Source: Pandoraea horticolens (GTDB lineage: Bacteria; Pseudomonadota; Gammaproteobacteria; Burkholderiales; Burkholderiaceae). Taken from it: a stretch of 64,000 bases of DNA. This document shows, in pieces, positions 11,885-21,800 of the stretch (position 1 is its first letter; the number at the start of each line of letters is the position of its first letter). The position numbers and the translations under genes are program-made. Under the pieces are notes generated by a model that was not told the DNA's origin, did no database searches, and was given only the letters and a program-made list of their open reading frames with translations. The stretch covers positions 372,001-436,000 of the forward strand of contig NZ_CABPSM010000002.1 in NCBI RefSeq assembly GCF_902459555.1, read 5' to 3'.

Positions 11885-13243
11885 ATGGCTAACGATACCG
11901 GGCGCACCCTGATTTACGCCTCCCGAAAGCATAACGATGGCTTGCTGTCGTTTCTGGGGGAGCAAGGCTGGCAAGTCGTGCCGGCCAAGAGCGCCAGCGA
12001 CGTCGGGCGCATTCTGAATCCGGGGGTCACCAGTGCGGCACTCATTGACCTGGCGAGCGGTTATAGCGACCGCGAGATGGGGGCGTTCGAGTCCTGCATG
12101 CAACCTGCCACTGTCGGTTGGGTAGCGGCCACGAATCCCGAGCAACTCACGACAACAGCCATTCGTCGGCTGATTCGCGATTACTGCTTCGATTATGTCA
12201 ATGTCCCGTGTACGAACGATCAGCTCGCGCATTCGATCGGTCATGCGTGGGGCATGGCGTCGCTCTCGGAAGTGCCGACCTTCACGCCGCAAGTTGGCGG
12301 CGATCAGGAGATGGTCGGAACGTGCGAGGCGATGCAGCAACTCTTTCGCACTATTCGCAAGGTCGCCAATACCGACGCTCCCGTGTTCATCTCGGGCGAG
12401 TCGGGCACGGGCAAGGAACTGACTGCGGTGGCTATCCACGAGCGCTCATTGCGCGCGAAGGGGCCATTCGTGGCGATCAATTGCGGGGCGATTCCCCCGC
12501 ACCTGATGCAGTCCGAACTATTCGGCTACGAGCGCGGCGCCTTTACCGGCGCGAATGCGCGCAAGATCGGCCGGGTCGAGGCTGCCAACGGCGGCACGCT
12601 GTTGCTCGACGAAATCGGCGATCTGCCGTTCGAGAGCCAGGCGAGTCTGTTGCGTTTCCTGCAGCAGGGCGCGATCGAGCGTCTGGGCGGTCACGAGGTG
12701 ATTCCGGTCAATGTGCGCATCATCTCCGCAACGCACGTCGATCTGGAGGAAGCCGTCAAGGAAGGCCGTTTCCGCATGGATCTGTACCACCGCCTGTGCG
12801 TGCTGCGCGTGGAGGAACCGCCGCTGCGCGCTCGCGGACAGGACATCGAGATTCTGGCGCACCATGTGCTGCAACGCTTCAAAGGCGATAACCATCGCAA
12901 GATCCGCGGCTTCACGCAGTGCGCAGTGCAAGCGATGTACGAATATCACTGGCCGGGCAACGTGCGCGAGTTGATCAACCGCGTGCGCCGCGCCATCGTG
13001 ATGGCCGACAGCCGAACGATCTCGGCGAAAGACCTTGATTTGCTGCCGTGGGTACCGACTTTGGTGCGCACGTTGGAAGAAATTCGCGCGGAGGCCGAGC
13101 GAACGGCCATCGAGCAGGCATTGCTGCGCCACTGTCACCGGCTGACGGACGTGGCAGCAGAGTTGGGCATTTCACGCATTACCCTCTATCGGCTCATGTG
13201 CCGGTACGGGCTGCGTGGCGACGAATCGGGCGTGCCGGCCTGA
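11885..13243 (+). CDS. Sigma54-dependent transcriptional activator, VpsR/FleQ class
   Basis: The 452-residue protein has three parts. Residues 1-125 resemble a receiver but show no clear phospho-acceptor pocket. Residues about 143-370 form an AAA+ domain with Walker A GESGTGKE (from residue 171), the sigma54-contact loop GAFTGA (from 218) and Walker [11 protein letters not shown]. The C-terminus is a Fis-type helix-turn-helix ([20 protein letters not shown]). GAFTGA marks it as an activator of sigma54 polymerase. VpsR and FleQ are c-di-GMP-responsive regulators of biofilm matrix; that ligand is only inferred here, and the FleQ-type LFRS motif is not evident. It faces the amyloid-like operon, which starts at a -24/-12 promoter, and is its likely regulator. 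Confidence 0.88.
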
Positions 13244-13944: not shown

Positions 13945-13960
13945 TGGCACGGAAGTCGCT
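13945..13960 (+). promoter_or_regulatory. Sigma54 (-24/-12) promoter of the amyloid-like operon
   Basis: TGGCACGGAAGTCGCT matches the sigma54 consensus TGGCACG-N4-TTGCW with one mismatch (TCGC for TTGC); the invariant GG and GC are 10 nt apart. The start of transcription would be near 13971, about 20 nt before the first ATG. A sigma54 activator gene ends 700 bp upstream. Confidence 0.8.
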
Positions 13961-13989
13961 TTATTGAGCCGGGCAAGGAGGGCTTAGCG

Positions 13990-14541
13990 ATGCGAATTCT
14001 CACCACCGAAATGCAGTACCACGTACGACAAAGCGTCAGCGTGTTGAGCGCAGTCGTCGTCGTGACGCTCGGTCTGTGCGCGGTACCGGCGCACGCTCAG
14101 GACGTTTCGCGCTCGCCGCTCATGCATGTCGCGATGCTCACCGGCTCGATGGTGCCGGCATCGTTTGGCACGACGGTGCGTCCGGTCACGCCGGTCTCCG
14201 ACGCCGACGCCGTGACACCGGTCGCTGCGCAGCCGCCCGTGGACGAAGCCGCGGCTGTCGCGAGCAGCGACGACTCGGGCAACGTCGCCGACGGCAAGCG
14301 TATGAGCGAAGCTGGCATGCCGCTCGCCGCCGCCCGCATCGACGACGAACAACTTGGGAGCCAGCGCGGCCGCAATCTGCAAGGCGGCGCGATGGTCAAT
14401 TCACCCGGAATGGCACTCGCCAACGGCGTTACGTTGTGGGACGAACTGCCCGGCGCCGTGACGCCGACGCCGCGCCCGCAACAACTGTCGAATGGCGTGA
14501 ACAACGTTCAGGTGACACGTGTGATCTACACGACGCGGTGA
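13990..14541 (+). CDS. Exported protein with LWDE motif, first gene of the amyloid-like operon
   Basis: The 183-residue protein has a signal peptide ending AHAQ near residue 37 and a mature part rich in Ala, Val, Asp and Pro without predicted domains. Near the C-terminus is NGVTLWDELPG followed by a Pro-rich TPTPRPQQ, and a very similar NNVRLWDEV plus Pro-rich tail occurs in the protein encoded at 20225-20680. AAGGAGG 8 nt before the ATG supports this start. No function is recognised. Its place first behind the sigma54 promoter suggests a secreted accessory, chaperone or surface factor of the amyloid-like system. Confidence 0.75.
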   Translation: MRILTTEMQYHVRQSVSVLSAVVVVTLGLCAVPAHAQDVSRSPLMHVAMLTGSMVPASFGTTVRPVTPVSDADAVTPVAAQPPVDEAAAVASSDDSGNVADGKRMSEAGMPLAAARIDDEQLGSQRGRNLQGGAMVNSPGMALANGVTLWDELPGAVTPTPRPQQLSNGVNNVQVTRVIYTTR

Positions 14542-14546
14542 ACAAG

Positions 14547-15053
14547 ATGACCCCAATTTCCATGACCCATGCCGGACGTCTGCTCGCCACGATGATCGTG
14601 GCGCTGACACCGGCGATGCTGCCCGGACGTGCACATGCCGAACCGGCGACGCCCGGCGATATCGTGGTCGAGCGCAGCATTGGCCCCGAGATCGCGTACC
14701 GCGGTCTGCCGCGCGTCGAGAACCCCATCGCCGTCTCGGTGCCTGCCTTCCCGACGGGGCCCTTCAATACCGCCATGGGGGCCGTCAATCAGGTCACCGA
14801 TGGTGAATTGACAGGGCGCGGCAATGCGGGGCTCGTGACGAGTGCGGTGCAATCCGGCATCAACCCGGTGATGGGCGTGCTCGTGGGCAATGCCCGTGGG
14901 GGTAACGCGCTCAATACCTCCAACGGTGTCGGCGGCGGGTTCGGTGCCGGGGCCGGCGGTGGTGTCGGCAGCATCGGCACACTCGTGCCGTCGGTGATCA
15001 GCTCGGCGTTGGCGCCGCTCACCAGCATCGGTGCAGCAGGAGCGGCGAAATGA
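14547..15053 (+). CDS. Exported glycine-rich protein in FapA-like position
   Basis: The 168-residue protein has a signal peptide ending GRAHA near residue 31, a middle with TDGELTGRGNAGL, and a long Gly/Ala/Ser-rich C-terminal half (GGGFGAGAGGGVGS near residues 130-143). It begins 5 nt after the preceding stop, and its own stop overlaps the next start (ATGA), so it is translationally coupled. In Pseudomonas the gene before fapB is fapA, a regulator of fibre composition; no sequence likeness to FapA can be claimed, so the equivalence is positional. An alternative is a minor fibre subunit. Confidence 0.7.
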   Translation: MTPISMTHAGRLLATMIVALTPAMLPGRAHAEPATPGDIVVERSIGPEIAYRGLPRVENPIAVSVPAFPTGPFNTAMGAVNQVTDGELTGRGNAGLVTSAVQSGINPVMGVLVGNARGGNALNTSNGVGGGFGAGAGGGVGSIGTLVPSVISSALAPLTSIGAAGAAK

Positions 15054-15700
15054 GCGCACATCGCGGGTTGCGCGGCGCGCGGCGCGGTCTCCCTCTGGCC
15101 GTCGCGGTGGTACTGGCGACGTTTGCCGGGGTGTCGTCGGCGCAGGACCTATGGATTGTGAACGGCGAACTGGCCGGCACGCACGCCACGATCGAGAACG
15201 GTGCGGCGGTGGGCGTGACCGGAGCGCTGGGGGTGAACCAGGCGGCGGGCGTCAATAACGCTCAGGCCAACAGCGCCGTGATTGCAAACGGCGGCGGGCT
15301 GACGGTCGGTGCGTCGAGCACTCATCAACAAGCCCTCGTCACATCGACGACCGGCGCTGCCAGCGCCGCGATTCAAGGCAACGCATTTTCAGGCACCTCG
15401 GGGCTGACGCAAGTCAACCAGGCGAGCGGTGCCGGCAATCTTCAACGCAACGCGACCGTCATTGTGACTGGCGATGCGTCTGGAGTGGTGAGCGTATCGG
15501 ATACGGCACTATCCGCTGCGATCTCCAAGGGTGGCCCGGCTGGGCGCGACAACCTCAACGATCGGTTCCGCACGGCGTCGATATCCAGTGACGCTTTTCG
15601 CGGGGCGAGCGGTGTGGTCCAAGTCAACCAGTCGGCTGGGATAGGCAATGTAACCGCAAATGTTTTTGTGCTCCGTCCCCCGGCGGGCACATCTTTTTAA
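15050..15700 (+). CDS. FapB-like amyloid subunit (minor/nucleator candidate)
   Basis: The 216-residue exported protein has a signal peptide ending VSSAQ near residue 27. It carries three imperfect repeats near residues 58-78, 116-139 and 185-208 (for example ALGVNQAAGVNNAQAN and VVQVNQSAGIGNVTAN), pattern V-N-Q-[AS]-[AS]-G-x-x-N-x-x-x-N, separated by Ser/Thr/Ala-rich linkers. Such Gln/Asn/Gly repeats are the amyloid core units of FapB and FapC and also recall curlin repeats. No cysteine is seen. It overlaps the upstream gene by 4 nt and precedes the larger repeat protein, as fapB precedes fapC. Subunit role is inferred; nucleation is by analogy. Confidence 0.75.
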   Translation: MSAHRGLRGARRGLPLAVAVVLATFAGVSSAQDLWIVNGELAGTHATIENGAAVGVTGALGVNQAAGVNNAQANSAVIANGGGLTVGASSTHQQALVTSTTGAASAAIQGNAFSGTSGLTQVNQASGAGNLQRNATVIVTGDASGVVSVSDTALSAAISKGGPAGRDNLNDRFRTASISSDAFRGASGVVQVNQSAGIGNVTANVFVLRPPAGTSF

Positions 15701-15730
15701 CTGGGTAACTCTCTCGTCAAGGAGATGGTC

Positions 15731-16906
15731 ATGAAAACGAAAGCAATTGCAGCGGCTGCACTGCTGGTAGCAACGGGTAGCGCCCTGGCGTCGCCCAATC
15801 ACCAGCAATATAGCTTCTCGTTCATCGGCAACGAGACCAACGTTCTGAATCTGGTCGGCATTTTCGGGCTGATCGGCATCAGGGGCTGCGTCACGGTGGA
15901 TAACACCGGCAACGCCGTCGTGCAAAGCAATCAGAGCGTAGATGTATACGGCGTGAATCTGAAGGGGCCGCTGCTTGGCAACTTTGTGACGGGCAAGGTC
16001 ACGTATGGCGTCGACTCGAAGACGACGACGATTTCGGATCACGGCAGCTCTTATTTGCTGGCAAGCAAGACGACCACGCACTACGACAACTCCACGTCGT
16101 GGGTGAACGCCAGCGCGGACGGCCACCTGAACACGAGCAAATCGTTCCAGGCCGGAGCCGTGTTTTTCCACTTCCCGCATGGCTTCTTCGCATCAGGCTT
16201 CCTGAACACGCAGAAGAGCTTCGATGCAGCGTTCCATGCCGTATTGAACCACGGCAATAAATCGGTCGAGAGCGATACGATTGCCGCCGCCGCGCTGTGG
16301 GGTTTCACCAACACGTTCGCGAAGTCCAGCGTATGGACCAAGGGCGCGATTACGTACCACTTCAACACGGCGCAGTACCAGACGATGGGTGCAACGCTGG
16401 GTGCTGGTGCGCTGGCTAACGCCAACGGCAATATCGGTGTGAACGTGGCAGCGGGTGCCGACAATGCGCAGGCCAACAACGTCGCGATCGCTTCGCTCAA
16501 TGCTCAGCCGGTGTATGCCTCGGCTCAGGTGTTCGCGAATCAGTCGTCGAAGGGCTCGGCCAGCATCTCGCATTTCTATGTCAACTCCAGCGTGGGTGAT
16601 GGTGCGCTCGCCGGTGCGACCGGGAACGTGGGGGTGAACGTGGCGGCGGGTGTTGGCAACGTGCAGGAGAACGGTCTGGCCGCAGCAGTCTCGCAAGGCG
16701 GCAGCGGCTGGCACAAGGGCGGTGCCGCCAACTCGACGGCGCAAACCGACCAATCGGCAAGCATGAAGGCCTCGGGTGACTTCATCGCCAACGCTTCGCT
16801 GGGTAAGGGCGCACTCGCCTTTGCCAGCGGCAACGTCGGTGTGAACGTGGCTTCAGGTATCGGCAACGTGCAGGCCAACAACCTCGCCATCTCGGCAATC
16901 AAGTGA
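15731..16906 (+). CDS. FapC-like major amyloid subunit candidate
   Basis: The 391-residue exported protein has a signal peptide ending SALAS near residue 20. The N-terminal half (about 25-215) is a Ser/Thr/Phe/His-containing region without recognised fold. The C-terminal half has three clear repeats near residues 220-252, 286-318 and 355-391, consensus GALA-x-x-x-GN-[IV]-GVNVA-[AS]-G-x-x-N-x-Q-x-NN, 66-69 residues apart, the last at the C-terminus. FapC of Pseudomonas is the main fibre protein with three repeats and a C-terminal CxxC; here the only Cys is near residue 57 and no CxxC exists. The start at 15731 has AAGGAG 6 nt upstream; the ATG at 15725 overlaps that site. A terminator follows at once. 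Confidence 0.78.
   Translation: MKTKAIAAAALLVATGSALASPNHQQYSFSFIGNETNVLNLVGIFGLIGIRGCVTVDNTGNAVVQSNQSVDVYGVNLKGPLLGNFVTGKVTYGVDSKTTTISDHGSSYLLASKTTTHYDNSTSWVNASADGHLNTSKSFQAGAVFFHFPHGFFASGFLNTQKSFDAAFHAVLNHGNKSVESDTIAAAALWGFTNTFAKSSVWTKGAITYHFNTAQYQTMGATLGAGALANANGNIGVNVAAGADNAQANNVAIASLNAQPVYASAQVFANQSSKGSASISHFYVNSSVGDGALAGATGNVGVNVAAGVGNVQENGLAAAVSQGGSGWHKGGAANSTAQTDQSASMKASGDFIANASLGKGALAFASGNVGVNVASGIGNVQANNLAISAIK
16390..16903 (+). repeat. Three amyloid-type repeat units in the FapC-like gene
   Basis: Units begin near 16390, 16588 and 16795. Each encodes GALA, then GN[IV]GVNVA[AS]G and N-x-Q-x-N. DNA identity between units is high in the GVNVA core (GGTGTGAACGTGGC and close variants), so the array may have arisen by duplication. 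Units are 198-207 bp apart. Confidence 0.8.
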
Positions 16907-16913
16907 TGCCACT

Positions 16914-16945
16914 AACCGGTCCGGGAATTCCCGGACCGGTTTTTT
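16914..16945 (+). terminator. Intra-operon terminator/attenuator after the FapC-like gene
   Basis: The perfect 12-nt arms AACCGGTCCGGG and CCCGGACCGGTT, with an AATT centre, are followed by TTTT. The hairpin starts 7 bp after the FapC-like stop and ends just before the FapD-like gene, so it should reduce read-through to the processing and export genes or stabilise the subunit mRNA. Confidence 0.85.
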
Positions 16946-16958
16946 CATGAGGTGTGTC

Positions 16959-17669
16959 ATGAGAGATGTGCGTCGTGCCGCGGTAAGAATCGCTACGGTT
17001 TGCGCTCTGGCGTGCGCAAGCGTGGCCGGGCACGCGCAGTACGCATCGGTGAATCTCGAGTCTTCGACGGGTGTACCGGCGGTCAAGAAGATGCGCTCGT
17101 TCAAATCGATGCACTACGTGAATCTGGTCCAGCAGGAATACGACTTCAGTTGCGGATCGGCGGCCCTGGCAACACTGCTGCGTTATGGCTACGGGATCGA
17201 TATTCCGGAGCCGGAAATGATCCAGAAAATGATGGTGTTTTCCAATCCGGAAACGGTCATCAAAAATGGCTTCTCGATGCTCGACATGAAGAAATTTGTG
17301 GAGACGCTTGGACTCGAGGGCCGCGGTTTCAAAGTTGACGTGAATGCGCTTTACGACCTGAAGATCCCGGTTATCGCGCTGATCGACGTCAACGGCTATC
17401 AGCATTTTGTGGTCATCAAGGCAGCGAAGGACGGACGCGTGTTCGTATCCGATCCGGCGCTCGGCAATCGCATCATCGAGCAAGCTGATTTTGCCAAGCA
17501 ATGGAACGGCTTGGTGTTGGCGGTCATCGGCAAGCCGTTTATGGAGGATTCACCGCTGCTCAAAGGAAACGAATCCCTGGCAGTCAAGCTGCGCGACAGT
17601 GCGCTGGCGACCGGGACGTCACCGACCCCGATGGTGGATTTCGGCATCATCCGGGCGGACCTGTTTTGA
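16959..17669 (+). CDS. Secreted C39-family cysteine peptidase (FapD-like)
   Basis: The 236-residue protein has a signal peptide (RRAAVRIATVCALA through AGHAQ) and a peptidase C39-like domain from about residue 55. Catalytic residues are visible: Cys65 in YDFSCGSAAL, His149 in YQHFVVIKA and Asp165 in SDPALGN. Stand-alone, exported C39 proteins with this motif set are the FapD type, needed for Fap secretion in Pseudomonas; bacteriocin C39 domains instead sit on ABC exporters. The start at 16959 has AGGTG just upstream; the ATG at 16947 would add four residues. It lies downstream of a terminator hairpin, so its level may be below that of the subunits. Confidence 0.85.
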   Translation: MRDVRRAAVRIATVCALACASVAGHAQYASVNLESSTGVPAVKKMRSFKSMHYVNLVQQEYDFSCGSAALATLLRYGYGIDIPEPEMIQKMMVFSNPETVIKNGFSMLDMKKFVETLGLEGRGFKVDVNALYDLKIPVIALIDVNGYQHFVVIKAAKDGRVFVSDPALGNRIIEQADFAKQWNGLVLAVIGKPFMEDSPLLKGNESLAVKLRDSALATGTSPTPMVDFGIIRADLF

Positions 17670-17681
17670 GATCAGACCATC

Positions 17682-18443
17682 ATGAACCGATATGTTCCGA
17701 TGCTGGCAATCCCGCTGTTTGCGAGCGCCCTGCCGGCATTTGCATCGAGCGTGGTGCCCGAGACGTGGACGCCCGTGAGCGACGAAGTGCTCGCGCACGC
17801 GACCGGCAAGTACGCGCAACAAAACATGATCACCGGCTTTCAACTCGTGATGCAGTCGCAATGGCAAATGCCGACCGGGGCGAGCCTGGCGGCCACCGGC
17901 GTGCTCAGCGTCAGCCAAGGGAGTTCCGGCTTCCAGGTGCAGACCGGTGCAGCCACTGGCATCGTCCCCGGCTTCGTAAGCGCAACCACGCCGATCACGC
18001 AAGTCGTAGGGGGGGGAATGAGCGTGTTCGTGAATGGCGTCGCTCAGATTACGCAAGTTGCGGGAGATGCAAACAATGCGCTGAACAAAGCCACAATTCA
18101 GTTCGGCCCTGGGGTATTGATTGCCACGCTGGTACCGGTCAGCGGGCAGGGCGCGAACAGTTCCAGCACGACGGTGGGCAACTTGAGCGCGAGCGTGGCC
18201 ATTACATCCGCAGGCATGCAGATCTCGCTCAATACGCCGAACGGCAATCTCGGTCAGAGCGTGGGCGGCGGTGCCGGTGCGGCGATGAACCAGATCATGC
18301 AGGTCGCGCAGGTCGCGGGTAACGCTCAGCAGGTCATGAACACGATGCAATTGAACCTGCAGACGAGTCCGCTCACGTCGAACGTGCTGCGTCAGGTCGG
18401 TATTCAGAACGCAATGGCGAACATGGTCGCCCTGCGCCGATGA
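17682..18443 (+). CDS. FapE-like exported protein
   Basis: The 253-residue protein has a signal peptide ending PAFASS near residue 22, then WTPVSDEVLAHATGKY and FQLVMQSQWQM, a pattern of the kind seen at the mature start of FapE-like proteins. The rest is rich in Gln, Asn, Gly, Val and Ser. It lies between the FapD-like and FapF-like genes, as fapE does. FapE is a minor, extracellular component in Pseudomonas. Codons near residues 110-112 contain eight consecutive G (18009-18016), so slippage would truncate the protein. Spacing to the upstream gene is 12 bp. Identification is by position and general composition. Confidence 0.68.
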   Translation: MNRYVPMLAIPLFASALPAFASSVVPETWTPVSDEVLAHATGKYAQQNMITGFQLVMQSQWQMPTGASLAATGVLSVSQGSSGFQVQTGAATGIVPGFVSATTPITQVVGGGMSVFVNGVAQITQVAGDANNALNKATIQFGPGVLIATLVPVSGQGANSSSTTVGNLSASVAITSAGMQISLNTPNGNLGQSVGGGAGAAMNQIMQVAQVAGNAQQVMNTMQLNLQTSPLTSNVLRQVGIQNAMANMVALRR

Positions 18444-18749
18444 AGTGAAGAGCAAGTGGAGTAACGGCGTCGCGCTGCCGTGTGTGCACGGGGCGACGCC
18501 GGCAGCAGTGTCCGGCAATGCAAGTCGTCGCCGGACACCATGAAAACTAGAAGTGGGGCGTCGCCGCAGCAACATCCGCGGCGCAAAGAAGGTGATGTCG
18601 GCAGGGCCCGGGCATGACATATCGAGGTGGATGGCAACGGGTCTCGCACGCATCACCCCGCAGTCGAGCAGCAAGGACAACGTTGTTGGTAATACACGTT
18701 TGTTGGATTGCGCGCGGACGCCTGTCCGCACTTTTACCCGGGGGGGATC
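18444..18749. other. Non-coding gap inside the amyloid-like operon, with inverted repeat
   Basis: About 300 bp without a credible gene separate the FapE-like and FapF-like genes. It contains GTGTCCGGC (18508-18516) and its complement GCCGGACAC (18530-18538), a 9-bp stem with a 13-nt loop and no T tract. It may be a processing site, an RNA structure, or the leader of a separate promoter for the outer-membrane channel. The gap ends in seven G that serve as ribosome-binding site. Confidence 0.5.
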
Positions 18750-20081
18750 ATGAACACTCACCGCTTTTTTCCCGTTGCCGCTATTCCGTTGGGGGTACTG
18801 CTTTTCACGCTATCGGCCCAGGCTCAGGAGCATACGAACCCATCGCCGGACGACCGTCTGCAAATGCTGATGGACATGGTCGACCGGCAGCAGCGGGAAA
18901 TTTCTTCTCTGAAACAGCGCCTCACCGACATTGAGATGGCGCAACGCGGTCGCGGTCTGACCGCGTGGGACACTGCGCAGATTGCGCAGGTCTCGCCCGG
19001 TGATGGTTCGGCTGCGGGCTCTGCAGGTACCCCCGGCGGCGGCGCTGCCGGGGCTGCGGGCCCGACAACGGCCACGCCGATCGGCGAGACGCAGCAGATG
19101 CAAAAGAGCGAGAGCGACTCGCAGCGCACGCCGGCCGAAGAGGCGGTGGTGCAGGCGCAACATGCGCCGCTGTTCGACCGCAAGCTCACTATCGACGCCG
19201 GTATCAGTTACAGCTACTACGACCGTCGCCAACTCGTGTTGAGCGGTTTTCTCGCCCTCGACGCCATCTTCCTCGGTCAGTTGAACCTCGGCCAGACCAA
19301 GGCCAATGTGTGGACGTTCGACGTCAACACGCGCTACGGAATCAACGACCGGCTGAGTGTGGCGTTCGACGTGCCGTACCTCTATCGCAATTCCGATTTC
19401 ATTTCGGGTGGGGTGGGCGGTGCGGCGTCGTCGATCAGCGACATCAGCAAGAATTCGGCGAACATCGGCGACGTCAATGCGTCCCTGTACTACCAGATCG
19501 TCAAGGAGAACGCGAACTGGCCCGATATCGTAGCGTCGTTGCGGGTGACCGCGCCGACCGGCACGTCGCCGTTCGGCATCAAGCTCGGCACGCCCGATCC
19601 GACCAACAACAACCTGACGACGCCCTCGCGTCTGCCCACGGGTAACGGGATATGGGCGGTCACGGCCGGCCTGTCGTTCTTGCGCACCTACGATCCGATC
19701 GTGCTGTTCGCCAACGTGGCGTACACGTACAACGTGGCTCGCACGTTCAACGACATCTCGACCATCGAAGGCACGACGCAGCCCGCGAAGGTCAAGCTGG
19801 GCGACATCATTCAGGTTGGCGCGGGGATGGCGCTGGCGCTCAACGACAAGACCGCATTGTCGATCTCATACTCGACGGCGATCTCGCGTGCGACCAAGAC
19901 GGCCACGCCAGGTAGCGCCTGGACCACGGTGGCGGGCAGCACGACGAACGCGGCATCGCTCAACTTCGGCATCAACTACGCGATCAACAAGCACTGGACC
20001 GTGAATGGTTATGTCAACGCAGGCATGTCGCCGGACGCACCGAACTATGTCGTCGGCCTGCGCTTCCCGTACACGTTCTGA
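18750..20081 (+). CDS. Outer-membrane amyloid exporter, coiled-coil plus beta-barrel (FapF-like)
   Basis: The 443-residue protein has a signal peptide ending SAQAQ near residue 26, then a heptad-type coiled coil near residues 32-68 (DRLQMLMDMVDRQQREISSL), a Gly/Ala/Pro linker near 84-115, and from about 145 a C-terminal region of alternating beta strands ending in LRFPYTF, the terminal Phe being the signature of outer-membrane barrels. This matches FapF, a trimeric barrel with an N-terminal helical plug through which amyloid subunits leave the cell. The start at 18750 follows GGGGGGG; an in-frame upstream start gives no signal peptide. It is the last gene of the presumed operon. Confidence 0.83.
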   Translation: MNTHRFFPVAAIPLGVLLFTLSAQAQEHTNPSPDDRLQMLMDMVDRQQREISSLKQRLTDIEMAQRGRGLTAWDTAQIAQVSPGDGSAAGSAGTPGGGAAGAAGPTTATPIGETQQMQKSESDSQRTPAEEAVVQAQHAPLFDRKLTIDAGISYSYYDRRQLVLSGFLALDAIFLGQLNLGQTKANVWTFDVNTRYGINDRLSVAFDVPYLYRNSDFISGGVGGAASSISDISKNSANIGDVNASLYYQIVKENANWPDIVASLRVTAPTGTSPFGIKLGTPDPTNNNLTTPSRLPTGNGIWAVTAGLSFLRTYDPIVLFANVAYTYNVARTFNDISTIEGTTQPAKVKLGDIIQVGAGMALALNDKTALSISYSTAISRATKTATPGSAWTTVAGSTTNAASLNFGINYAINKHWTVNGYVNAGMSPDAPNYVVGLRFPYTF

Positions 20082-20224: not shown

Positions 20225-20680
20225 TCAACGTGCGATACCGACAGGTACGCGGCCGACGTTGGCATTGCCTTTCAGGCTCGTCGTCTGCAATCCCGATGCG
20301 AGGGACGGCGGCGAGTTGGGTGAGTTGGCCGAGTAGGCCGACGCCGTCACCGCCGGGTGTGGCTGGGCGGGAAAAGTCGCTGATGCCTGAGTTGGCTTGG
20401 GTGCCGGTGCTGGGGGAATCACTTCGTCCCACAGACGAACGTTGTTGGCGGTGGTTGTGGTGGCGTTGACGGGGGCGACGACGACCGGTGCCGTGCCGGA
20501 CAGATTGGCGACGACACTTTGCTGCAGGTTCGCCGCGCGAGTGCTGGCGAGCAGCATGTCGCTCACGGCGACCGGGACACCGGCAATGCCGGTAATGTCG
20601 GCCTGCGCAGCACTCGCAAAGCACGCAGCTGCCAAGCTGAACGTGGCACTGCGCATCGTCTTGACGGTGATCTTGAACAT
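20225..20680 (-). CDS. Second LWDE-motif exported protein, flanking the amyloid-like operon
   Basis: The 151-residue protein has a signal peptide (MFKITVKTMRSATFSL through AAQAD), then an Ala/Val/Asn-rich segment, the motif NNVRLWDEV, and a Pro-rich tail APAPKPTQ. The protein encoded at 13990-14541 has the corresponding NGVTLWDEL and TPTPRPQQ, so the two are likely paralogues bracketing the operon. The frame extends upstream to 21106 without a signal peptide; 20680 is preferred, with a G-rich stretch and GGAGG upstream. A TAGAAT -10 candidate lies at 20727-20732 (complement). Function is unknown. Confidence 0.7.
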   Translation of the reverse strand: MFKITVKTMRSATFSLAAACFASAAQADITGIAGVPVAVSDMLLASTRAANLQQSVVANLSGTAPVVVAPVNATTTTANNVRLWDEVIPPAPAPKPTQASATFPAQPHPAVTASAYSANSPNSPPSLASGLQTTSLKGNANVGRVPVGIAR

Positions 20681-21074: not shown

Positions 21075-21800
21075 ATGCGTGTGCTGGTCGTAGGTGAGGC
21101 TGCCACCTGGCTGAGCGGCCTGCAAGTCGCGTTGCAGACCGAAGCGAACGCGACACCGCCGGTCTTGCGTCATGTCGACGATGTGACGGTGCAGGACTGG
21201 CTCTGGTTACGCGAATTGCCTTCGCGGCGCGCGCTCGTACTCGAAGAATCGGTGGCCCGTACACCGGCTGTTGACTCCCTCTGCACGATGGCGGCCGAAT
21301 GTGTGCCGCCGGTGCCCGTCATCGTCGTCGGCGATGCGGGTTTTCCCGATGAGATCATTCGCTGGCTGCAGGCGGGCGTTGCCGCATGTCTGCCTTGGCC
21401 GAATTCGGTCGCACGAATTCGTTCGGTCTTCGATCTTGCGTTCTCGGGCGGGCGATTCGTGCCGGAAGAAGCGCTTTCGGCGTTACTTGTGCTCTGGCGG
21501 CAGGAGGCCATGGGAGAGGCGTTGCCGCTCTCGCGTTTGCCGGTGTTCCCGCTGGGGGGCGACAAGGCGACGCAACTGGCCGAATCGGCGCTGCTCGGCA
21601 TCTCCCAGCGGCAGTACGAAATTCTCGCGCTGCTCTCGCGCGGGTTATCCATCAAGACGATCTGCCAGCAACTGGTGATTTCCGAGGGGACCGCCAAGAC
21701 GCATGTCTCTGCCCTATACCGGCGCCTCGGCGCGCGCAATCGCGGCGAGGCAATTTATATTGCGGCGCAGCGCGGCGCGCGTCATCTGTTCGAAACATGA
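21075..21800 (+). CDS. LuxR-type response regulator with degenerate receiver
   Basis: The 241-residue protein has an N-terminal receiver-like domain (about 1-120) and a C-terminal LuxR/GerE helix-turn-helix (about 175-235; ISQRQYEILALLSRGL through KTHVSALYRRL). The receiver lacks the usual acidic pair after strand 1 (VLVVGEAATW in place of a VDD-type sequence), and the acceptor region reads ALVLEES, with Glu where Asp is expected. It probably works without phosphorylation. GGGGAA precedes the ATG; the in-frame start at 21015 adds 20 residues outside the fold. No histidine kinase gene is adjacent. Location suggests control of the divergent LWDE gene and perhaps the operon. Confidence 0.82.
   Translation: MRVLVVGEAATWLSGLQVALQTEANATPPVLRHVDDVTVQDWLWLRELPSRRALVLEESVARTPAVDSLCTMAAECVPPVPVIVVGDAGFPDEIIRWLQAGVAACLPWPNSVARIRSVFDLAFSGGRFVPEEALSALLVLWRQEAMGEALPLSRLPVFPLGGDKATQLAESALLGISQRQYEILALLSRGLSIKTICQQLVISEGTAKTHVSALYRRLGARNRGEAIYIAAQRGARHLFET

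What the first reader, a model, noticed from the sequence alone, without database searches (positions are those of the whole stretch)
13945..20081. Divergent Fap-like functional amyloid secretion operon
Seven co-directional exported proteins are encoded in a row. Seen: Gln/Asn/Gly repeat proteins at 15050 and 15731, an exported C39-type peptidase with Cys65/His149/Asp165, a FapE-like protein, and a coiled-coil plus beta-barrel protein ending in Phe. Known: Pseudomonas fapABCDEF has this content and order, with FapD a C39-type peptidase and FapF the outer-membrane channel. Inference: this is a functional amyloid system with two extra genes, placed between recR and housekeeping metabolism. The subunits look diverged enough that simple annotation would call most of them hypothetical.
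Basis: partly seen in the sequence, partly recalled or inferred. Interest (0 to 1): 0.88.

Follow-up and report, generated by a model that had tools for sequence, protein, structure and literature searches.

The report
Bacterial amyloid operon with extra gene
This is a real version of the operon that bacteria use to build Fap amyloid fibres for biofilms; it carries a conserved seventh gene that has no family model, and that gene's product shares with FapE a short motif that looks like the missing cutting site for the system's essential protease.

Summary

Two things go beyond that. (1) The first gene, X (13990-14541), is a conserved seventh component without a Pfam or NCBIfam model. It follows a sigma-54 site in 29 of 29 other genus loci and occurs in 43 of 107 fap loci elsewhere. 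(2) X and FapE share a C39 leader motif in the textbook register: L(-12)..E(-8)L(-7)....G(-2), then R/K or G. L/M(-7), G(-2) and R/K(-1) hold in 183 of 183 FapE entries (178 distinct). A matrix trained on FapE of other families ranks FapE first and X second of 566 window ORFs. Sister FapD/FapF cassettes carry true RGG leaders.

Best reading: FapD cuts FapE and X at this site before FapF exports them. This answers, in testable form, what FapD cuts. Cleavage itself is not shown.

The parts
11885..13243 (+). sigma-54 activator (EBP) with VpsR-type N-terminal domain, likely activator of the operon
   Evidence: Pfam Sigma54_activat 8.2e-69, VpsR 5e-22; kept in 29 of 29 other genus loci; role inferred from position
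13945..13959 (+). sigma-54 -24/-12 promoter TGGCAC-N5-TCGC, 45 nt before the ATG of X
   Evidence: 9 of 10 consensus bases; same site 44-45 nt before X in 29 of 29 other genus loci (28 at 9/10, one at 8/10); 5 sites of >=9/10 in 128,000 window positions
13990..14541 (+). gene X, proposed fapX: exported 183-aa protein with C39-type leader motif, LWDE box and a tail like half a Fap repeat
   Evidence: no Pfam or NCBIfam hit at E<=1; six relatives gave only two chance-level hits, E 0.067 and 0.92; found in 29 of 29 other genus loci and 43 of 107 other fap loci
14338..14373 (+). leader motif of X, IDDEQLGSQRGR (residues 117-128), predicted FapD site after Arg128
   Evidence: rank 2 of 566 window ORFs with a matrix trained on FapE only; 93% mean identity among 27 genus sequences against 59% in the preceding linker
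14547..15053 (+). fapA-like chaperone gene, diverged
   Evidence: NF058617 E 1.2e-5, NF058556 2.3e-3; orthologues
15050..15700 (+). fapB, minor subunit/nucleator, three repeats
   Evidence: NF058557 E 1.2e-24; repeats
15731..16906 (+). fapC, major amyloid subunit, three C-terminal repeats after a ~230-aa N-terminal region
   Evidence: NF058558 E 4.4e-19; repeats
16947..17669 (+). fapD, periplasmic C39 cysteine peptidase (Cys69, His153, Asp169)
17682..18443 (+). fapE, fibre-associated subunit and main proposed FapD substrate
   Evidence: NF058559 E 1.4e-18
17775..17810 (+). leader motif of FapE, VSDEVLAHATGK (residues 32-43), predicted FapD site after Lys43
   Evidence: rank 1 of 566 window ORFs; 183 of 183 FapE entries (178 distinct) keep L/M(-7), G(-2) and R/K(-1); predicted helix 34-45 at low confidence, strands from 48
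18750..20081 (+). fapF, outer-membrane channel, N-terminal coiled coil by eye
   Evidence: NF058560 E 1.5e-111; PDB 5o65 FapF E 3.5e-78 over residues 143-443
18921..18956 (+). leader-like stretch after the FapF coiled coil, LTDIEMAQRGRG, one residue short of the register (weak)
   Evidence: 12-column score 5.5 in genus orthologues; score of 7 or more in 9 of 9 X-less Burkholderiaceae FapF
20225..20680 (-). gene Y, likely paralogue of X, converging on fapF; LWDE box kept, leader site degenerate (Ala in place of Gly -2)
   Evidence: found in 29 of 29 other genus loci; X-position genes in L069 and L080 are best found by the Y model; motif rank 211 of 566
21075..21800 (+). LuxR-type regulator with likeness to CsgD next to the cluster (role unknown)
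   Evidence: GerE 9.5e-13; CsgD model 6.3e-10, below cut-off

Best explanation
This is a diverged but complete Fap functional-amyloid operon, probably of a Pandoraea species, driven from a sigma-54 promoter and led by a seventh gene, X. All products go to the periplasm by Sec. FapD, a free periplasmic C39 peptidase, recognises FapE and X by a leader helix of the same kind that C39 domains of bacteriocin exporters read, and cuts after RG[K/R/G]. The cut frees FapE and X for passage through FapF with FapB and FapC; FapE, and on this reading X, become minor parts of the fibre base or cap. Shown by sequence: operon identity, conservation of X, promoter site, catalytic triad and C39 fold, shared leader motif in the C39 register. 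Inferred: that FapD cuts there, that X is exported, and what X does in the fibre. My confidence by step: Fap operon 0.97, FapD acts on this motif in FapE 0.8 and in X 0.7, X is exported or fibre-associated 0.4.
For: Six Fap models in order; FapF to PDB 5o65; FapD fold, with the 13 best entries all C39 domains of PCAT1, ComA or LahT, some solved with leader or substrate bound. Published C39 consensus L(-12)xxxE(-8)L(-7)xxxxG(-2)G(-1) (PMC6959990, passages), with -12, -7 and -4 important in LahT (PMC6363468, passages). FapE keeps L/I/V/M(-12) in 179, L/M(-7) in 183, G(-2) in 183 and R/K(-1) in 183 of 183 entries (178 distinct, 16 training loci included). In Pseudomonadaceae the motif lies soon after the signal peptide (by eye) and FapE is rank 1 in 32 of 32 loci. 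X, not used in training, is rank 1 for 26 and <=3 for 40 of 44 genes outside the genus; with matrix columns permuted, 0 of 60 trials reach the observed mean rank on a 12-locus subset. Strict motif: FapE 129 of 135, X 52 of 73, unlabelled ORFs 16 of 12,551. Sister cassettes with FapD and FapF relatives: both small neighbours carry ....L...RGG in 13 of 13 loci, and the channel has ....[LM]...[RK][GA][GAT] after its coiled coil in 13 of 13, RGG in five. FapD is needed, with its Cys, for FapC secretion, and FapE lacks N-terminal peptides in mass spectrometry (PMC5557850 section 8).
Against: No cleavage was measured. FapE never has a small residue at -1 (0 of 183), while C39 domains cut after Gly-Gly, Gly-Ala or Gly-Ser through a narrow pocket (PMC6363468, passages). 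The published mass spectrometry puts missing FapE peptides at the first ~70 residues; the predicted cut is nearer residue 40-50. FapF of Fap operons mostly lacks the motif (strict form in 9 of 129, one of these a chance place inside a barrel), although FapF has been proposed as a target. Y has only a degenerate site. Four of the 44 X genes rank 7 to 29. Of seven plasmid-borne C39 loci the matrix finds a neighbour as top ORF in four only; Acinetobacter Fil proteins do not score. X was not seen in the Pseudomonas-type and Stenotrophomonas loci held, so it is not essential to Fap in general.
Confidence: 0.72

Rival explanations
1. The shared motif is a docking helix: FapD binds FapE and X there, as substrate-tethering C39-like domains do, but the essential cut lies elsewhere, for instance in the FapF linker.
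For: C39-like domains without cleavage are known (stated in PMC5557850 section 8); R/K at -1 in 183 of 183 FapE entries is unusual for C39 cutting; a FapF cut has been proposed (PMC5557850, PMC12822426, passages).
Against: FapD keeps Cys/His/Asp in 36 of 36 and its Cys is needed (PMC5557850); sister cassettes have true RGG at the same place; FapE shows no N-terminal peptides (PMC5557850).
Confidence: 0.15
2. X is a periplasmic regulator or competitor of FapD or FapE rather than an exported fibre part: its leader occupies FapD, and the LWDE tail binds another component.
For: X is usually first in the operon and would be made first; Y looks like a paralogue with a spoiled site that could act as a decoy; 18 of 73 X tails lack any Fap-repeat-like residues by simple pattern.
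Against: 41 of 73 X tails hold a G..N.Q half-repeat like the ends of FapB/FapC; leader and tail are conserved together in the genus, 93% and 91%.
Confidence: 0.3
3. The motif is not a protease site but a worn copy of the start of a Fap repeat, whose first residues (VGDGALAGATGN) fall in a similar spacing.
For: FapC repeats share D(-10), L(-7), G(-2) with it (sequence).
Against: Strict motif in 0 of 135 FapB and 0 of 133 FapC; in FapE it is not followed by the repeat; in sister cassettes it occurs with GG in proteins that the FapB and FapC models miss in 12 of 13 loci.
Confidence: 0.05
4. The locus is not Fap but an unrelated adhesin or Fil-type pilus operon.
For: FapD and FapF also hit FilB (5.6e-37) and FilC (1.2e-13) models.
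Against: Fap models score far better (FapF 1.5e-111, FapD 1e-59), FapB/FapC repeats and FapE are present, order is canonical.
Confidence: 0.02

Closest known systems
Fap functional amyloid system of Pseudomonas (fapABCDEF)
   Same: All six genes, order, three repeats in FapB and FapC, catalytic FapD, FapF barrel; sigma-54 control is recalled for Pseudomonas, not looked up
   Different: All proteins below NCBIfam cut-offs; one more gene (X) in front, a likely paralogue Y behind, a VpsR-type activator next door; FapA barely recognisable
Fap operons of Burkholderia, Ralstonia and Pandoraea named in PMC3792158 and PMC6173800
   Same: Same system, same family of bacteria; PMC6173800 names Pandoraea among Fap carriers (passage)
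   Different: Those surveys and the GTDB v226 screen (PMC12822426, passages) look for the six known genes; gene X and the leader motif are not in the parts I saw
C39 peptidase domains of PCAT exporters (PCAT1, LahT, ComA) and their double-glycine leaders
   Different: FapD is free and periplasmic, without transporter (PMC5557850); -1 is Lys/Arg in FapE, mixed in X
Fil system of Acinetobacter and FapD/FapF-only cassettes of Burkholderiaceae
   Same: C39 peptidase next to a FapF-like barrel
   Different: No FapE; cassettes have two other small RGG proteins; Fil proteins score low on the motif

Membership tests
Fap functional amyloid operon | fapA/B/C/D/E/F homologues in one operon in this order | tested here: met
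   (six models in order; FapA weak), for FapA orthologues
[quoted passage not shown]
   published as near-universal (PMC12822426, passages)
Fap functional amyloid operon | FapD: exported C39 peptidase with intact Cys/His/Asp | tested here: met
   export judged by eye
Fap functional amyloid operon | FapF: 12-stranded barrel channel with coiled coil | tested here: met
   sequence match to 5o65; the window protein was not modelled and its coiled coil was judged by eye
Fap functional amyloid operon | score over curated NCBIfam cut-offs | tested here: not met
   all six below cut-off (FapF 373 of 700 bits); 0 of 398 family genomes reach it for FapF, while 43 of 148 Pseudomonadaceae reach it for FapE, so the cut-offs seem set for Pseudomonas
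Fap functional amyloid operon | amyloid fibres made in vivo | not testable with these tools
   needs fibre purification
C39 double-glycine leader (in FapE and X) | hydrophobic -12, Leu/Met -7, Gly -2 in register | tested here: met
   FapE 179/183, 183/183, 183/183; X 72/73, 73/73, 73/73 (best-scoring 12-mer of each protein, so somewhat favoured)
C39 double-glycine leader (in FapE and X) | Gly, Ala or Ser at -1 | tested here: not met
   FapE 0 of 183; X 14 of 73; the cassettes' small proteins have Gly
C39 double-glycine leader (in FapE and X) | cleaved by the cognate C39 peptidase | not testable with these tools
   needs N-terminal sequencing or in vitro cutting

The most novel reading that the evidence does not exclude
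FapD plus FapF is the core of a general export route across the outer membrane: cargo reaches the periplasm by Sec, carries a C39-type leader, is cut by a free periplasmic C39 peptidase, and leaves through a FapF-type channel. Fap amyloids are one user; the FapD/FapF-only cassettes, in which both small proteins bear an RGG leader and the channel a related site, are another. In Fap the route has drifted to a basic residue at the cut, and X (fapX) is a second leader-bearing cargo that caps or starts the fibre.
Probability: 0.4. Interest if true: 0.85.

Novelty: new variant of a known kind. Interest (0 to 1): 0.64.

Why it matters
FapD's protease activity is essential for Fap fibre secretion in the published assay, yet its target was called unclear in 2017 and undetermined in 2018, and FapD was only 'thought' to process FapE and FapF in 2025 (PMC5557850, PMC6173800, PMC12822426). 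A motif fixed at three positions in 183 of 183 FapE entries gives a single bond to test in the established assay, and a handle for finding other substrates. A conserved seventh operon gene outside Pseudomonas means that the six-gene picture taken from Pseudomonas is incomplete for many Fap bacteria.

Tried and rejected
Y as a FapD substrate: rank 211 of 566 in the window and 3 to 81 in the other genus loci; left as a likely paralogue with a worn site. FapF of Fap operons as a general substrate: strict motif in 9 of 129; eight of these are X-less Burkholderiaceae and one (L191) is a chance place inside the barrel; the ninth X-less Burkholderiaceae FapF (L070) and L122 reach a score of 7 but fail the strict form. 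FapA and FapB: partial likeness by eye only, strict motif in 1 of 90 and 0 of 135; published mass spectrometry indicates FapA to FapD unprocessed (PMC5557850), so rejected. Library models for leaders: X relatives and cassette proteins gave no leader family in NCBIfam or Pfam at E<=10; short models may be insensitive. FapE fold search: no Foldseek match at E<=0.001 in PDB with a model of middling confidence (pLDDT 73), so nothing concluded. FapD of Fap operons against FapD of cassettes: 8 positions differ cleanly, among them 126 R/D, but none is an obvious partner for a basic -1 residue. Plasmid carriage: no near DNA match in the plasmid set. L127 was dropped from the X count as a false LWDE hit. 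My notebook count of 20 X loci among 28 Burkholderiaceae was wrong; it is 19.

Limits. X outside the genus was sought by an LWDE pattern, so X genes without it would be missed, and five of the 79 named loci hold under 2,500 nt before fapD and could not show it. The 28 Burkholderiaceae loci were picked by me for genus spread from the list; the 79 named loci are the best 80 of at least 570 by likeness to one FapD. The training motifs were cut out by the pattern [RT]G[RK][YF], and FapE ranks are partly circular; five pairs of FapE entries are identical, two of them training loci repeated among the named (L109/L126, L111/L151). X and the cassettes are the independent tests. The pN/pS figures leave out three divergent genus loci.
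Full report

WHERE IT IS. The assembly's genus has 32 genomes here, own included, one of only 1.2 Mb; with size and G+C this points to Pandoraea (inference; no record name was seen). FapF occurs in 31 of 32. In 29 of 29 other genus loci fetched, recR - activator - X - A - B - C - D - E - F - Y(reverse) - LuxR are all present at the matching places. FapF relatives at E<=1e-30 are found in 184 of 398 genomes of the family, 9 of 25 genera; this count includes the FapD/FapF cassettes described below.

GENE X. The first gene (13990-14541) has no Pfam or NCBIfam hit at E<=1; six relatives gave only two chance-level hits, E 0.067 and 0.92. A sigma-54 site TGGCAC-N5-TCGC lies 45 nt before its start in the window; the same site lies 44-45 nt before X in all 29 other genus loci (28 at 9 of 10 bases, one at 8). 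Outside the genus, 34 of 44 X genes have a site of at least 9/10 between 300 nt before and 180 nt into the open frame, against 5 such sites in 128,000 window positions. X is therefore very likely the head of the fap transcript. With an LWDE pattern, X is found in 19 of 28 Burkholderiaceae fap loci outside the genus and 24 of 79 named loci from a FapD scan (one further hit, L127, dropped). It precedes the other fap genes in 41 of these 43 loci; in L121 and L122 a FapC-like gene comes before it. The named ones include Halomonas, Methylotenera, Methylophaga, Amphritea, Pelagibius and Bryobacterales. A Halomonas locus with two tandem fap operons has an X in front of each (L155). X was not found in the Pseudomonas-type (L156, L180) or Stenotrophomonas loci held. 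X has a signal-like start, a variable linker, a leader motif, then [VI][IT]LWDE and a short tail. In the genus (27 sequences) the linker is 59% identical, the motif 93% and the tail 91%. In 41 of 73 X the tail holds G..N.Q, like the end of a Fap repeat; 14 have QGN/QSN and 18 neither.

THE SHARED MOTIF. X has LDDQTLSRQRGG in several relatives and IDDEQLGSQRGR in the window; window FapE has VSDEVLAHATGK. C39 domains read leaders of the form L(-12)xxxE(-8)L(-7)xxxxG(-2)G(-1) (PMC6959990, passages seen), and LahT needs -12, -7 and -4 (PMC6363468, passages seen). I trained a matrix on 16 FapE from other families of the class; all 16 contain RG[RK][YF], by which the motifs were cut out. In the window it ranks FapE first and X second of 566 ORFs; Y is 211th. 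In 78 of 78 named loci with FapE, FapE is the top ORF (two of these FapE are identical to training ones), and in 32 of 32 Pseudomonadaceae loci, where ELKDQELAQLRG[RK]Y and the like follow the signal peptide closely. Two of the 32 repeat named loci. Over 183 FapE entries (178 distinct, 16 of them training), L/M(-7), G(-2) and R/K(-1) hold in 183 and L/I/V/M(-12) in 179. X was not in the training set: outside the genus it ranks first for 26 and within three for 40 of 44 genes, leaving FapE aside; the other four rank 7, 9, 12 and 29. On a 12-locus subset, none of 60 column-permuted matrices does as well. A strict pattern hits 129 of 135 FapE, 52 of 73 X, 9 of 129 FapF, 0 of 135 FapB, 0 of 133 FapC, 1 of 90 FapA and 16 of 12,551 unlabelled ORFs.

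AN INDEPENDENT SYSTEM. Thirteen loci (L058, L092-L103) have FapD and FapF relatives but no FapA, FapC or FapE by my models; one, L058, has a weak FapB match at 3e-4. Each has two further small exported proteins by FapD and FapF. Both carry ....L...RGG in 13 of 13. The channel has ....[LM]...[RK][GA][GAT] after its coiled coil in 13 of 13: RGG in five, RGA in five, RGT in two, RAT in one. Of seven plasmid-borne C39 loci tried, the matrix gives a neighbour of the peptidase as top ORF in four; two more have RGG leaders that I see by eye but that score low, and Indioceanicola is weak. Acinetobacter Fil proteins do not score. PMC6173800 had noted fapD-fapF pairs in five further phyla (section 6).

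HOW IT LIKELY WORKS. Sec exports all parts. FapD docks on the leader helix of FapE and X and cuts after RG[K/R/G]; the freed proteins pass FapF with FapB and FapC. A 2017 study found FapD and its Cys necessary for FapC secretion and FapE without N-terminal peptides, and wrote that Fap proteins lack canonical C39 sequences (PMC5557850, sections 6 part 1 and 8 and passages). The present motif fits all but the -1 position, which is always basic in FapE. In the FapE model the motif forms a helix (34-45, low confidence) just before the first strand. A VpsR-type sigma-54 activator upstream suggests control by cyclic-di-GMP (recalled for VpsR; inference).

WHAT IS KNOWN AND NEW. Fap in Burkholderia and Ralstonia is in PMC3792158 (Results and Discussion, first parts read) and Pandoraea is named in PMC6173800 (passage). 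A 2025 screen reports that over 90% of 1602 clusters are fapABCDEF or fapBCDEF (PMC12822426, passages). My searches of the open-licence library listed no paper that I could see describing gene X or a FapE leader; I opened only nine papers, most of them in passages, most subscription papers and all supplements are outside my reach, and Supplementary Fig. 18 of PMC5557850 on GG motifs in FapE was not seen.

VERDICT. The operon is an ordinary, well-kept Fap system of a known kind. The seventh gene and the C39-type leader shared by FapE and X are the news, and they make FapD's target directly testable. Cleavage, export of X and fibres remain unshown.

Noticed in passing
20225-20680 (-): Gene Y, a likely paralogue of X on the other strand behind fapF in 29 of 29 other genus loci; keeps LWDE but in the window has Ala in place of Gly(-2). 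Evolves somewhat faster than X (median pN/pS 0.47 against 0.39). Possible decoy or regulator.
   Followed up: partly
L058, L092-L103: FapD/FapF cassettes in Burkholderiaceae in which both small exported proteins carry RGG leaders and the channel a related site; three small proteins tried have no Pfam or NCBIfam model.
   Followed up: partly
L064-L068, L070, L071, L079, L086: In the nine Burkholderiaceae fap loci without X, FapF itself carries the leader motif after the coiled coil (score 7 or more in 9 of 9, strict form in 8), while no X-bearing Burkholderiaceae FapF listed reaches that score. X and a FapF site may replace each other.
   Followed up: partly
FapD residues 125, 126, 174, 195 (16947 numbering): Positions that differ cleanly between FapD of Fap operons (G, R, N, G) and of RGG cassettes (A, D, T, H), candidates for cut-site preference.
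   Followed up: no
18444-18749: A 306-nt gap between fapE and fapF, unlike the tight spacing of the other genes; fapF may have its own promoter or an attenuator. One of 29 genus loci has a 10/10 sigma-54 site 245 nt before fapF; the window has none better than 6/10.
   Followed up: no
21075-21800: LuxR-type regulator with likeness to CsgD next to the fap cluster in 29 of 29 other genus loci.
   Followed up: no
15731-16420: FapC has a ~230-residue N-terminal region before the first repeat with no family match.
   Followed up: no
L155: Halomonas locus with two tandem fap operons, each led by its own X.
   Followed up: no
L200:4726-5565: Acinetobacter FilA has MDDAALSAATGQ right after its signal peptide, which by eye fits L(-7) and G(-2) though it scores low; Fil may use a more distant form of the site.
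   Followed up: no
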